Source: Armatimonadota bacterium
GTDB taxonomy: Bacteria; Armatimonadota; Armatimonadia; Armatimonadales; Armatimonadaceae
Length of the DNA: 13,787 bases
Direction: 5' to 3'
Assembly (NCBI GenBank): GCA_014381035.1
Contig: JACMIS010000126.1
Coordinates: 1-13,787 of the forward strand
The translations under genes and the position numbers were made by a program. Of this stretch, positions 3,606-7,251 are shown piece by piece. The notes below the pieces were generated by a model. The model searched no databases and had not been told where the DNA came from. It was given only the letters and a program-made list of their open reading frames with translations. The stretch's first letter is position 1. Every line of letters begins with the position of its first letter.

Positions 3606-3617
3606 CTTTGGTACGAT
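3606..3617 (-). promoter_or_regulatory. Downstream operator half-site (O2) of the 2711-3571 gene
   Basis: The plus strand reads CTTTGGTACGAT, identical over all 12 bases to 7174-7185 in front of the other H-X9-DG gene. It is inverted relative to the site next to the -10 box, with 33 bases between the two GGTAC/GTACC cores. Binding of the AraR-like regulator encoded at 7305-8495 is inferred. Confidence 0.55.
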
Positions 3618-3643
3618 TGGAAAAGACCACCGATTGGTGAACG

Positions 3644-3657
3644 ATTTGTACCAAAAC
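3644..3657 (-). promoter_or_regulatory. Operator (O1) overlapping the transcription start of the 2711-3571 gene
   Basis: The plus strand reads ATTTGTACCAAAAC. On the transcribed orientation this is TTTTGGTACAAAT, and its first base is the last base of the -10 box. A repressor here would block initiation directly. The half-site ATTTGTAC equals the half-operator known for Bacillus AraR, a regulator with the same GntR plus LacI-type architecture as the one in this window. Confidence 0.55.
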
Positions 3658-3684
3658 TATAACATGCCAATGCGCAATCGTCAA
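3656..3684 (-). promoter_or_regulatory. Sigma-70-type promoter of the H-X9-DG gene 2711-3571
   Basis: On the minus strand TTGACG (3679-3684), a 17-base spacer and TATAGT (3656-3661) with TG two bases before the -10 (extended -10). The same arrangement, with the same spacer length, precedes the other H-X9-DG gene. The start would fall near 3649, giving a leader of about 80 bases. Confidence 0.75.
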
Positions 3685-3691
3685 CATAACT

Positions 3692-3748
3692 CAGAAAACA
3701 TTATTTTGGTATTACTTTGTCGCTATGGTACCAAAATAATGTTTTCTG
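3692..3748. repeat. Perfect 20-bp inverted repeat, 17-base loop
   Basis: Arms at 3692-3711 and 3729-3748 are exact reverse complements. The inner ends are TTTTGGTA and TACCAAAA, the core of the proposed operator. It lies 7 bases upstream of the -35 of the H-X9-DG gene and between it and the GH76 terminator. It could be an upstream operator or looping site, a second transcription stop, or a small palindromic element. Confidence 0.8.
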
Positions 3749-3751
3749 CAG

Positions 3752-3785
3752 ATAAATCCCGCCCGATTACGGGGGCAGGATTTAT
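3752..3785 (-). terminator. Hairpin terminator after the GH76 gene
   Basis: Arms 3752-3764 and 3773-3785 with an 8-base loop, about 10 bases past the GH76 stop codon. As minus-strand RNA all 13 positions pair, one of them G-U; on the plus strand that position is a C-A mismatch. There is no clean U-tract on the minus side, so it may act as a transcript-end stabiliser as much as a classical terminator. Confidence 0.65.
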
Positions 3786-3795
3786 AGATTAAGTT

Positions 3796-5346
3796 TTATT
3801 GAAGTAGCCACCGTTGCTGCGGACCGCTATTCCAAGGCCACTGAGTAAGTTTATATCCATTCACAGGAGAACTGGAGTTATCCAGCGACAAGCCACTCGC
3901 CTGGTTCCATATCCTGTAGCTACCGTCCGGTTGTTGATCTACCCACCATCGCTGGTTGGAATCTCGGTTCAGTGACCATTGAACCATCTGGAGGTCGTTC
4001 GCCGCGGAACCACCTGGGCAATCCAGAGCCATCCAACTGGACTGGCTGGTGATGTTCCAGGACGTGTCGGCGTTCTGCGTAAAGTTCCACTTCTGGTTCT
4101 GTCCACCATTGAAGCCCCACTGAACGACGCGTTGATTGTTGCCAAACAAGCCGGCGGTATCGATTGCTATACCGTTCTGTTTGCTGACAATGAAGTGCAT
4201 ACCAGCAATATTATTTGGCTGTGTGACCGGGGTGAACTGAAGCCATGCGACCGCGCTGGCAAACTTAGACGTGATCAAGGAGTTGTCACGCGGTGTCGCC
4301 TGATTCCAGCCGTTCCAGGTAATGTTATAGTCGGTGCGGCGGTTACTCATGATGGCGTCCGCGTTCTGCACCATCCAGGGATAGTACGCACCCCACTGAC
4401 GGTTGTCTCTGCAGAAATGACCCAAACCGCGTGCGAATTCATCGGCCCAAGTGTTCAAATACCCCGCGTTGTTGGTGATGATGCCGTTGGTGGTCATGTT
4501 GTTCCGAACGTAATCAATCGACCTTTTGGCATCATTGTAATACATCACATCCCCGGTGATCTGGTAGAGTAGATTGGCATAATCTACGAATGTCCCCTGG
4601 TTATAAACCGCTGTGCCCGTGTTGACGACCCCACTGCGGTCGACACCGGTATAAACTGCGCCAGTGTTCGTGTTATAGATATGACTGCGGACCCAGGCAT
4701 ATATCTGTTTCGCCCGGTCCAAATACCACACATCATGGGTGCTCTGATAGATCATGCAGGCAACTTTTCCGAGACTGTTGTTGGACAGGGCTTCCTTACC
4801 AATCGGCTCACCAGGTGGCGTCATATCGGGTTGTTGCTCCCAGATGCCTCCACCGTTATACTGGGTGTCCCATCCACGAGCCCATGCCATATCGAAACCA
4901 TACCGTGCCTGAGTGAGAAAATTGGGATTGCCCGTCATTTGATAGCCCCGGATCAACGCCATCGAGAACCACCCGATGTCGTCGTTCCAGCCATCCCAGG
5001 TCCAGGGTGGCGGAGTGTTCTGCAACCAGGTGGTACAAAGGTCGTTGACCAGTGCCTTGTGGGCGGCACTTCCGGTGCGCTCATAGGCATCCTCCGCGAC
5101 CATGATGTCTAAGGAGGCAACCCAGGTGCCGTCCGCGTTACCATTATTAATGGATTGCTTATAATAGGTCTTGCCACCGGATCTCACCAGAAAAGCATTG
5201 TTGAATGCGTTGAAGGATGAATCGGCATCACCCGGTCCAATGGCTGACGTTTGTTGCGGCAAGCCGCAACACAAACCTATAAGCAGAGCCATCAGCCCGA
5301 TTCGGGTTACGATCCTTGCTGTAATCGAGTGCTTGATTATATTCAT
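3796..5346 (-). CDS. Secreted GH76 alpha-1,6-mannanase-like enzyme with ricin-type lectin domain
   Basis: A 516-residue extracellular glycosidase. Residues 1-35 are a signal peptide ending TSA|IG. Residues about 40-370 form an (alpha/alpha)6 glycoside hydrolase family 76 domain; GH76 enzymes cleave alpha-1,6-mannan backbones of fungal and microbial glycans. The paired catalytic aspartates are D122-D123 in WDGWNDDIGWF. Other family-like stretches are GIWEQQ and NNSLGKVA. Residues about 381-516 form a beta-trefoil ricin B-type lectin (CBM13-like) with three QxW repeats, at Q418-W420, Q465-W467 and Q511-W513. This suggests that the enzyme anchors to insoluble or branched glycan. The ATG at 5346 is preceded by TAGGAAC, an acceptable ribosome site. 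The nearest good promoter is at 5513-5541. It lacks the GGTAC operator. Family assignment is strong; mannan as substrate follows from the family. Confidence 0.92.
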   Translation of the reverse strand: MNIIKHSITARIVTRIGLMALLIGLCCGLPQQTSAIGPGDADSSFNAFNNAFLVRSGGKTYYKQSINNGNADGTWVASLDIMVAEDAYERTGSAAHKALVNDLCTTWLQNTPPPWTWDGWNDDIGWFSMALIRGYQMTGNPNFLTQARYGFDMAWARGWDTQYNGGGIWEQQPDMTPPGEPIGKEALSNNSLGKVACMIYQSTHDVWYLDRAKQIYAWVRSHIYNTNTGAVYTGVDRSGVVNTGTAVYNQGTFVDYANLLYQITGDVMYYNDAKRSIDYVRNNMTTNGIITNNAGYLNTWADEFARGLGHFCRDNRQWGAYYPWMVQNADAIMSNRRTDYNITWNGWNQATPRDNSLITSKFASAVAWLQFTPVTQPNNIAGMHFIVSKQNGIAIDTAGLFGNNQRVVQWGFNGGQNQKWNFTQNADTSWNITSQSSWMALDCPGGSAANDLQMVQWSLNRDSNQRWWVDQQPDGSYRIWNQASGLSLDNSSSPVNGYKLTQWPWNSGPQQRWLLQ

Positions 5347-6231: not shown

Positions 6232-6266
6232 TCCATTAGAACCTTTCGCTGCGTCGTGTCATCAAG

Positions 6267-6294
6267 GAGTGCTACAGGTAGATCTGCAGCACTC
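6267..6294 (-). terminator. Hairpin between the H-X9-DG gene and the small membrane protein gene
   Basis: Arms 6267-6277 and 6284-6294 around a 6-base loop, 14 bases past the stop of the H-X9-DG gene. The inner imperfect pair is A-C on the plus strand and G-U in minus-strand RNA, giving an 11-bp stem. No U-tract follows, so partial attenuation or mRNA 3' protection is more likely than full termination; this could set a high pilin-to-small-protein ratio. Confidence 0.45.
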
Positions 6295-6308
6295 TCAATC
6301 TCGAAGTA

Positions 6309-7139
6309 CTACTTGTCCAGCGGGTAGGTCCACCAACGCCCCCAGAATTCCTGGAGACGAGACGCCTTCGTGCCGGTTCCATTAGGCGCATTGGCACCGG
6401 GCGACATGTATGTACCTTCGCAGGCTCCGTAAGACACATCACCGGCAATGTAATTATTGATGTTGACAGACTTGGCGTGCCCATCCGCATAAAGGACAGG
6501 CAAGAAGTTCTGATGGAAGTCCTTCGCGCCTTGGTAGACGCGGTTGTAGCCCCCCATCCACGACGACGTTGTGTCCTTGTAATTGTTGATGTTGGGGCAG
6601 GACGACCGTGCACCATCAACCCAGTGCATGTCATAAAGACCTCCGGCAGGGGTAGCGGGGAGAGGGTCACCCTGACTGACGAACGCCGCGCGGGTGGACG
6701 GGCTGATTAATTGATCCACAACCACGGTCCCCCCGGAACCATTCGCATCCGAGGTGTAGCCCCACCGGTTCGCCGCGAGGGTCGTACTCCAGCCCCATTG
6801 CCCGGCGGGGTCTATTTCGACGTAAGGGACGGACCGCTGTGCATCGAAGCAGACACTGGTCGACTTCATGTAGGGTTGTAGCAGGATACCCCACGCCCAA
6901 TATGTGGGGCCATTCCACTGCTGGAACGGCACGCTTGCACCGTCGTAGTCTTGGTTATACTGCGCCGCTGCCAGCCCGAGCTGCTTGAGGTTGGAAATGG
7001 TCGCGATGCCGCGTGCCTTACTCCGTGCCTGGGCGAAAACGGGGAAAAGTATGGCGGCGAGTATCGCGATTATAGCGATAACTACTAACAATTCGATCAG
7101 GGTGAATGCAGACGTGACAGGACTTCTCTTGACTAACAT
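6309..7139 (-). CDS. Prepilin-like secreted protein with H-X9-DG domain (DUF1559-type)
   Basis: A 276-residue paralogue of the 2711-3571 product. The N-terminus MLVKRSPVTSA|FTLIE has again Ala at -1, then the hydrophobic helix ELLVVIAIIAILAAILFPVF and AQARSKARG. H209 and D219-G220 make the H-X9-DG motif. The body is rich in Trp, Tyr, Asn and Gly, which would suit binding of carbohydrate or other polymers, but no known binding domain is recognised. The ATG at 7139 is chosen over an in-frame ATG at 7169 because GGAGGA lies at the right distance and the leader peptide is then ten to eleven residues. Promoter and operators at 7174-7251 match those of the paralogue almost base for base. The AraR-like regulator gene ends 165 bases upstream and the small membrane protein follows downstream. 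Confidence 0.9.
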   Translation of the reverse strand: MLVKRSPVTSAFTLIELLVVIAIIAILAAILFPVFAQARSKARGIATISNLKQLGLAAAQYNQDYDGASVPFQQWNGPTYWAWGILLQPYMKSTSVCFDAQRSVPYVEIDPAGQWGWSTTLAANRWGYTSDANGSGGTVVVDQLISPSTRAAFVSQGDPLPATPAGGLYDMHWVDGARSSCPNINNYKDTTSSWMGGYNRVYQGAKDFHQNFLPVLYADGHAKSVNINNYIAGDVSYGACEGTYMSPGANAPNGTGTKASRLQEFWGRWWTYPLDK

Positions 7140-7173
7140 ACTCGATTCCTCCATCGGTGGCTTCATCATACGC

Positions 7174-7185
7174 CTTTGGTACGAT
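7174..7185 (-). promoter_or_regulatory. Downstream operator half-site (O2) of the 6309-7139 gene
   Basis: CTTTGGTACGAT on the plus strand, identical to 3606-3617. It is inverted relative to O1 with 32 bases between the GGTAC/GTACC cores, against 33 at the paralogue. Confidence 0.55.
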
Positions 7186-7210
7186 CTGAAAGGGCTGCCT
7201 TGGGTGCGCC

Positions 7211-7224
7211 ACTTGTACCAAAAC
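7211..7224 (-). promoter_or_regulatory. Operator (O1) overlapping the transcription start of the 6309-7139 gene
   Basis: ACTTGTACCAAAAC on the plus strand. The stretch TTGTACCAAAACTATA is shared with the other H-X9-DG promoter. It abuts the -10 box, so occupancy should repress transcription. Confidence 0.55.
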
Positions 7225-7251
7225 TATAGCATACCATTACATAATAGTCAA
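7223..7251 (-). promoter_or_regulatory. Sigma-70-type promoter of the H-X9-DG gene 6309-7139
   Basis: On the minus strand TTGACT (7246-7251), a 17-base spacer and TATAGT (7223-7228) with an extended -10 TG. Geometry equals that of the paralogue's promoter. Confidence 0.78.

What the first reader, a model, noticed from the sequence alone, without database searches (positions are those of the whole stretch)
3606..7251. Twin promoter-operator modules on two H-X9-DG pseudopilin genes beside an AraR-like regulator
Both genes have TTGAC(G/T), 17 bases, an extended TATAGT, TTTTGGTACAA directly after the -10, then 32-33 bases and CGTACCAAAG in inverted orientation. The coding parts have diverged, so the control region has been kept on purpose. 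The regulator encoded between them has the AraR architecture, and the half-site matches the AraR type (ATTTGTAC). This predicts sugar-controlled expression of pseudopilin-like proteins, which I do not know to be described.
Basis: partly seen in the sequence, partly recalled or inferred. Interest (0 to 1): 0.72.

Follow-up and report, generated by a model that had tools for sequence, protein, structure and literature searches.

The report
Sugar-sensor repressor controlling two pseudopilin genes
In this bacterial DNA two pilus-like protein genes appear to be controlled by a neighbouring sugar-sensor-type repressor, and related genomes carry dozens of similar sensor-plus-pilin pairs, often near sugar-degrading enzymes, which hints at what a large unexplained protein family is for.

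Summary
The twin control regions are real, and a third lies on the regulator's own promoter. In all three a TTTTGGT(A/G)C word follows the -10 box and is centred on the predicted start site, with GTACCAA 36, 37 or 48 bp downstream (3 matches, null mean 0.001). TGGTACCA palindromes lie 63-83 bp upstream of each start. The regulator is a GntR/LacI chimera, but the full AraR operator is absent. The motif is not a general pilin element: GGTACC lies upstream of 3 of 150 scored pseudopilins of a genome inferred to be Capsulimonas corticalis. Pilin B orthologues there, followed by the same small ORF, have two TGGTACCA sites 36 bp apart. The pairing is general: in that genome 50 of 150 scored pseudopilins lie within 3 kb of a LacI-type sensor (null 10.8); in a second genome 59 of 150 start within 400 bp downstream of one, same strand (null 0.97). 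Of 29 next genes examined after sensor-adjacent pilins, 10 are glycoside hydrolases. Best reading: local autoregulated repressors, probably sugar-relieved, switch on individual DUF1559 pseudopilins. Binding, inducer and pilin function are untested.

The parts
7305..8495 (-). GntR-HTH + LacI-type sensor (Peripla_BP_3) regulator, 396 aa
   Evidence: PF00392 and PF13377 over cut-off; subfamily paralogues 50-61% identical in G017 and G001
8559..8572 (-). regulator promoter: TATAAT running into TTTTGGTGC, centred on predicted +1; no good -35
   Evidence: not listed by the promoter scan
8508..8514 (-). downstream GTACCAA word of the regulator promoter, 48 bp from the first, centre to centre
8626..8633 (.). 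upstream palindrome TGGTACCA at -69 of the regulator
7246..7251 (-). -35 TTGACT of pilin B
7213..7228 (-). -10 TATAGT running into TTTTGGTACAA, centred on predicted +1, pilin B
7174..7183 (-). downstream CGTACCAAAG of pilin B, 36 bp centre to centre
7276..7303 (.). two TGGTACCA palindromes 20 bp apart, at -63 and -83 of pilin B
6309..7139 (-). pilin B: prepilin N-terminus, DUF1559, H-X9-DG; start chosen at the ATG after GGAGGA
   Evidence: model mean pLDDT 90.3
5989..6231 (-). small ORF, 80 aa with a TTG start (69 aa in the database entry), one hydrophobic segment by eye, found after pilin B in relatives
3796..5346 (-). GH76 enzyme with ricin-B-type lectin domain
   Evidence: similar gene beside pilins and a subfamily regulator in L042
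3679..3684 (-). -35 TTGACG of pilin A
3646..3661 (-). -10 TATAGT running into TTTTGGTACAA, centred on predicted +1, pilin A
3606..3615 (-). downstream CGTACCAAAG of pilin A, 37 bp centre to centre
3692..3748 (.). 20-nt perfect inverted repeat upstream of pilin A that contains TGGTACCA (3726-3733, at -80) and a second TTTTGGTA half
2711..3571 (-). pilin A: prepilin N-terminus, DUF1559, H-X9-DG
3..2585 (-). GH2 enzyme, cut by the window end, directly downstream of pilin A

Best explanation
The GntR/LacI chimera at 7305-8495 is a local, autoregulated repressor. Without its ligand it occupies the word centred on the start site and the second word about 36 bp downstream at the two pseudopilin promoters and, with a changed word and 48 bp spacing, its own, perhaps helped by the upstream TGGTACCA palindromes, and so blocks RNA polymerase at near-consensus sigma-70 pilin promoters. 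A ligand, most likely a mono- or oligosaccharide released by enzymes such as the neighbouring GH76 and GH2, releases it, so the pseudopilins are made when their substrate is present. The window is one case of a recurrent arrangement in Capsulimonadales-type genomes in which individual DUF1559 pseudopilins sit by their own LacI or GntR/LacI sensor, often next to a carbohydrate-active enzyme. Shown by sequence: the sites, their positions, conservation, genome-wide pairing. Inferred: binding, repression, sugar ligand, role of the pilins.
For: Three promoters in the window share the composite site (null mean 0.001) and TGGTACCA occurs only upstream of these promoters. In L040, L001 and L039, pilin B orthologues (73-76% identical outside the N-terminus) are followed by the same small ORF; L040 and L039 have two TGGTACCA sites 36 bp apart at equal distances from the pilin motif, L001 has one; subfamily regulators flank the L040 and L001 copies. 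TGGTACCA has 18 listed sites in that 7.6-Mb genome; 4 are in those two pilin promoters. A Chthonomonadaceae pair (L007, L008; regulator 44-45% identical) has TGGTACCA or TGGCACCA in regulator and pilin promoters although its pilin is not a close relative. Cognate regulator and pilin promoters share better words than non-cognate ones (12 regulators, p 0.011; 5 distant GntR, p 0.010). Genome-wide pairing. Sensor-adjacent pilins have TTGAC-N17-19-TAnnnT in 36 of 50 against 18 of 72 (p 3.5e-7) and shuffle-beating palindromes just after the -10 in 9 of 36 against 0 of 18 (p 0.022).
Against: No binding or expression data. The 36/37/48 bp spacings are not whole turns, unlike AraR's in-phase boxes. 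In the C. corticalis orthologues the 36-bp pair sits at about -25 and +12, not +1 and +37. One GGTACC-carrying pilin (2787884) is 41 kb from the nearest of the 100 listed sensors, so control there would be in trans. By count alone the bipartite pattern is not enriched (1 match against 2 for the reversed control in G017; 1 of 8 genomes). GH76 and GH2 have no TGGTACCA of their own. In the cognate test 8 of 12 regulators individually have 5 or more non-cognate pilins scoring as well, and the wider scan of pairs was not formally tested.
Confidence: 0.65

Rival explanations
1. The sites belong to a different regulator (another LacI/GntR paralogue or a global factor), and the adjacent chimera has another target.
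For: The inferred C. corticalis genome alone has 100 LacI-type sensor matches and 48 GntR HTH matches; one TGGTACCA pilin is 41 kb from the nearest listed sensor.
Against: The same composite lies on the chimera's own promoter, and the regulator subfamily and word type stay together in three lineages.
Confidence: 0.15
2. The regulator is an activator or dual regulator acting from the TGGTACCA sites at -63 to -83, with the start-site word adding repression.
For: The upstream palindromes are the best full palindromes and lie in activator range.
Against: The pilin promoters are already near consensus (10 of 12); words on and after +1 are typical of repression; the C. corticalis pilin B orthologues have their TGGTACCA sites in the spacer and at about +12.
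Confidence: 0.13
3. The similarity of the two control regions is only recent duplication of a promoter-leader block, without selection for regulation.
For: The whole block from -35 to the ribosome site is 82 of 113 identical, including stretches outside the words.
Against: The words recur on the otherwise different regulator promoter and in relatives; upstream of -35 I see no similarity but TGGTACCA words.
Confidence: 0.06
4. The motif is a general promoter element of pseudopilin genes.
For: None found.
Against: GGTACC upstream of 3 of 150 scored pilins in the inferred C. corticalis genome.
Confidence: 0.01

Closest known systems
AraR of Bacillus subtilis (GntR HTH + LacI-type sensor, arabinose repressor)
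   Same: Domain architecture; paired boxes at target promoters; a box at its own gene (AraR features from passages of PMC4218819)
   Different: AraR box At(T/A)tGTaCGTAcaa(A/T)T absent; spacing not in phase; targets are pseudopilins; sensor closer to LacI/CcpA-type chains
DUF1559 / H-X9-DG pseudopilin-like proteins (PF07596)
   Same: Both window pilins match PF07596 and the prepilin motif
   Different: In the passages seen the family is a large paralogous group of unknown function in Planctomycetes (PMC10632474) or called solute-binding (PMC2754498); no dedicated sensor control was found in my searches
Bacteroidetes polysaccharide utilization loci (recalled, no call)
   Same: Local sensor, surface-type protein and glycoside hydrolases in one cluster, repeated many times per genome
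   Different: No SusC/SusD-type protein among the 7 scanned window proteins; a pseudopilin would take the surface-protein place

Membership tests
AraR | GntR HTH N-terminus with LacI/GalR-type sensor C-terminus | tested here: met
AraR | operator At(T/A)tGTaCGTAcaa(A/T)T | tested here: not met
   no match at up to 3 mismatches in the window; one exact half-site ATTTGTAC at 3644
AraR | two boxes in phase, cooperative binding with a loop | tested here: inconclusive
   two or more words per promoter, 36/37/48 bp apart, about 3.4-4.6 turns; cooperativity not testable
AraR | L-arabinose as effector | not testable with these tools
   none
DUF1559 / H-X9-DG pseudopilin | prepilin N-terminal motif, PF07596 and H-X9-DG | tested here: met
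DUF1559 / H-X9-DG pseudopilin | assembly into a filament or secretion pseudopilus | not tested
   assembly genes not searched; the model matches solved pilins only weakly, best E 0.41
Bacteroidetes-type PUL | SusC/SusD pair | tested here: not met
   no such family among the 7 window proteins scanned

The most novel reading that the evidence does not exclude
DUF1559 pseudopilins are substrate-specific surface components of a PUL-like system: each sensor (LacI or GntR/LacI type) switches on its own pseudopilin together with matching glycoside hydrolases, so a genome carries dozens of one-sensor/one-pseudopilin modules with private operators. This would explain the large expansion of this family of unknown function.
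Probability: 0.4. Interest if true: 0.85.

Novelty: new variant of a known kind. Interest (0 to 1): 0.67.

Why it matters
DUF1559 proteins form the largest paralogue group (68) of Planctopirus limnophila and their function is unknown (passage of PMC10632474); pseudopilin-type genes number at least 150 in each of two Armatimonadota-type genomes examined. Coupling of many of them to individual LacI/GntR sensors and carbohydrate-active enzymes turns the question into a simple test: which sugar induces which pseudopilin, and does that pseudopilin bind the matching glycan. Control of pilus-like proteins one by one by sugar-type repressors would be an unusual regulatory design.

Tried and rejected
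AraR operator: absent at up to 3 mismatches. Motif as general pilin element: rejected for the relative tested. Count enrichment of TTGGTAC-N-GTACCAA in whole genomes: none against the reversed control (1 of 8 genomes has a site, controls have 1-2 in 4 of 8; 3 of 19 genomes have a site; the sites in G011 and G016 were not examined). The stricter TTTTGGTAC-N-GTACCAAA had no match in 3 relatives. TTGGTACCAA: 3 sites in G017 against 4 for the control, yet 2 of the 3 are in pilin promoters; one site in G012 not examined. TGGTACCA is rarer than its control in G017 (14 against 42 forward); of 18 sites 13 were readable in held sequence, 4 of these in two pilin promoters, the others inside genes or before non-pilin genes, one 19 bp before a LacI-type gene. 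TGGNNCCA as a subfamily-wide core: 7 of 14 adjacent against 2 of 16 non-adjacent pilin promoters and 11 of 18 regulator promoters in the first set, but 3 of 7, 1 of 25 and 10 of 118 in the genome-wide set, so not a rule. Autoregulation words over all 58 sensor-pilin pairs (9 overlapping): a few clear cases, no formal test. Pilin head fold: no confident PDB match. Downstream genes: 10 of 29 with a glycoside hydrolase domain after sensor-adjacent pilins; about 8 of 57 after distant ones, a lower bound because only 25 of 59 and 25 of 34 families were shown; ORFs chosen mechanically.
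Full report
What is in the window. The window is 13,787 bases, 56% G+C. All genes discussed are on the minus strand. In the direction of transcription: a DUF1549/DUF1553 cytochrome-type protein and a DUF1501 protein; the regulator (7305-8495); pilin B (6309-7139); a small ORF (5989-6231); a GH76 enzyme with ricin-B lectin domain (3796-5346); pilin A (2711-3571); and a GH2 enzyme cut by the window end. The closest relatives of the regulator that bear an organism name are from Capsulimonas, which I recall as phylum Armatimonadota (closer hits are unnamed). 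No whole genome is held for the window.

The observation. Both pilin promoters have TTGAC(G/T), 17 bases, TATAGT with TG before it, and TTTTGGTACAA running on from it. If the -10 hexamer is placed at -12 to -7, the GTAC core of that word is centred on the start site in both, and the core of the second word is 37 (A) and 36 (B) bp downstream. The regulator's own promoter has the same arrangement (TATAATTTTGGTGC, then GTACCAA 48 bp on) but a poor -35. The composite has 3 matches, exactly these three, against a null mean of 0.001. TGGTACCA occurs four times in the window, each time 63-83 bp upstream of one of these starts. Coding parts have diverged: outside the first 120 aligned bases 302 of 686 are identical, against 82 of 113 in the promoter-leader.

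Is it the regulator's site? Four lines of sequence evidence. First, the same words on the regulator's own promoter. Second, orthologues: pilin B has relatives in L040, L001 and L039, 73-76% identical outside the N-terminus, each followed by the small ORF. In L040 and L039, both in G017 (inferred C. corticalis), the promoters carry two TGGTACCA sites exactly 36 bp apart, 149 and 113 bp before the pilin motif match; L001 has one. Subfamily regulators flank the L040 and L001 copies. The L039 copy is 41 kb from the nearest of 100 listed sensors. Third, a locus in two assemblies (L007 and L008, the latter named Chthonomonadaceae) with a 44-45% identical regulator and a different pilin has AAAATGG(T/C)ACCAAA-type words in both promoters, so the word follows the regulator rather than the pilin. 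Fourth, cognate promoters share better words than non-cognate ones (12 close-subfamily regulators, mean 10.5 against 9.65, p 0.011; 5 distant GntR, p 0.010; L008 dropped as near copy of L007, the overlapping divergent pair in L052 and short regions left out). Against: only some regulators show this individually, and the 36-bp pair sits at about -25/+12 in the G017 orthologues (placed by hand).

Is the motif general to pilins? No. Of 150 scored pseudopilin N-termini (215 candidates) in G017, 3 have GGTACC within 300 bases upstream of the motif match. Of the 150, 129 have H-X9-DG.

The wider pattern. In G017 26 of 48 GntR HTH matches (46 over the cut-off) lie within 5 kb of a scored pilin (circular-shift mean 7.6, p 0.0005). 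Of 150 pilins, 50 lie within 3 kb of one of 100 LacI-type sensor matches (mean 10.8, p 0.0004; 53 with the slightly different distance), and 17 of 150 are within 400 bp downstream on the same strand. In a second genome, G021, reached as an order-mate, 59 of 150 scored pilins (258 candidates) lie within 400 bp downstream of one of 150 scored sensors (217 candidates) on the same strand; random placement, with contig lengths approximated, gives a mean of 0.97 and a maximum of 6 in 500 trials. A gene-based estimate of mine (inference) would raise the expectation to about 5. In G017 sensor-adjacent pilins have a near-consensus promoter in 36 of 50 cases against 18 of 72 for pilins over 10 kb away; 28 in between were left out. 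Directly after the -10, palindromes that at most 5 of 100 shuffles reach, different at nearly every locus (for example AAGGTAGACATGTCTACCTT and TGATATACCGTTAACGGTATATCA), occur in 9 of 36 sensor-adjacent, 3 of 21 intermediate and 0 of 18 distant promoters. So an operator-like word on or just after the start site of a strong pilin promoter appears to be a repeated design with private sites.

Neighbouring enzymes. For the 50 sensor-adjacent pilins 48 next ORFs were found: 14 sensors, 4 pilins and 30 others (29 distinct). Of the 29, 10 carry glycoside hydrolase domains (GH1, 43, 76, 44, 18, 78, 30, alpha-galactosidase, alpha-amylase, alpha-1,3-glucanase), and several others carbohydrate-binding or pectate-lyase-like domains; 6 have no Pfam match at 1e-5. 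L042 has a GH76-ricin-B gene between two pilins, next to a subfamily regulator whose promoter shares GTACCAAAATA with the first pilin, and the second pilin has GTACCAAAATAA too, a functional parallel to the window. The far set shows about 8 of 57, a lower bound.

Conserved linkage in metagenomes. Regulator, pilin B and small-ORF hits repeatedly come from contigs of identical length (5328 in all three searches; 6985, 45522 and 185476 in the regulator and pilin searches), which suggests the same contigs. This is inferred from lengths only.

The small ORF. It has 17 database matches including the window's own, none with a precomputed Pfam domain. One hydrophobic segment (by eye) is followed by DPAA, PIPY and K-DY words. 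Function unknown; perhaps a membrane partner of pilin B (inference).

Mechanism. Most likely repression by occupancy of the start-site word with help from the second word and the upstream palindromes, and relief by a sugar. The regulator resembles AraR in architecture and in using several boxes, but fails the operator test. Whether the 36-bp pair is bound as two dimers on different faces of the helix is open.

Literature. Searches for Capsulimonas with prepilin, DUF1559 with pilin, Armatimonadetes with prepilin, H-X9-DG, DUF1559, Capsulimonas corticalis, pseudopilin with LacI and glycoside hydrolase, and prepilin-type with polysaccharide utilization showed no title or abstract on sensor control of these proteins. 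Only listings and the passages were seen, and the library holds open-licence papers only. One passage calls DUF1559 a family of solute-binding proteins (PMC2754498); that remains a possible alternative role.

Verdict. A real, conserved operator-like system for two pseudopilins and their regulator; the AraR label is not met; the larger result is the genome-wide pairing of pseudopilins with sugar-type sensors.

Noticed in passing
window 3692-3748: A 20-nt perfect inverted repeat with 17-nt gap upstream of pilin A contains two operator-like halves; more perfect than an operator needs to be.
   Followed up: partly
window 8645-8675: Terminator-like hairpin upstream of the regulator that itself contains GGTAT and GTACC words, perhaps a combined terminator and operator.
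   Followed up: no
G021 (5.8 Mb): 150 scored pseudopilin N-termini (258 candidates) and 150 scored LacI-type sensors (217 candidates) in one genome, with 59 tandem sensor-pilin pairs.
   Followed up: partly
L106/L039, G017 2787735-2787779: A second pilin B copy with two TGGTACCA sites 36 bp apart but its nearest listed sensor 41 kb away, suggesting control in trans.
   Followed up: partly
G017 2919205 (L044): TGGTACCA followed by TGGATCCA about 65 bp upstream of a 493-aa ORF that looks secreted, 3 kb from a subfamily regulator.
   Followed up: no
G017 genome: TGGTACCA is rarer than its reversed control (14 against 42 forward matches), as if GGTACC were avoided.
   Followed up: no
window 8749-13314: DUF1501 gene and a DUF1549/DUF1553/cytochrome gene upstream of the regulator, a pair I recall from Planctomycetes.
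   Followed up: no
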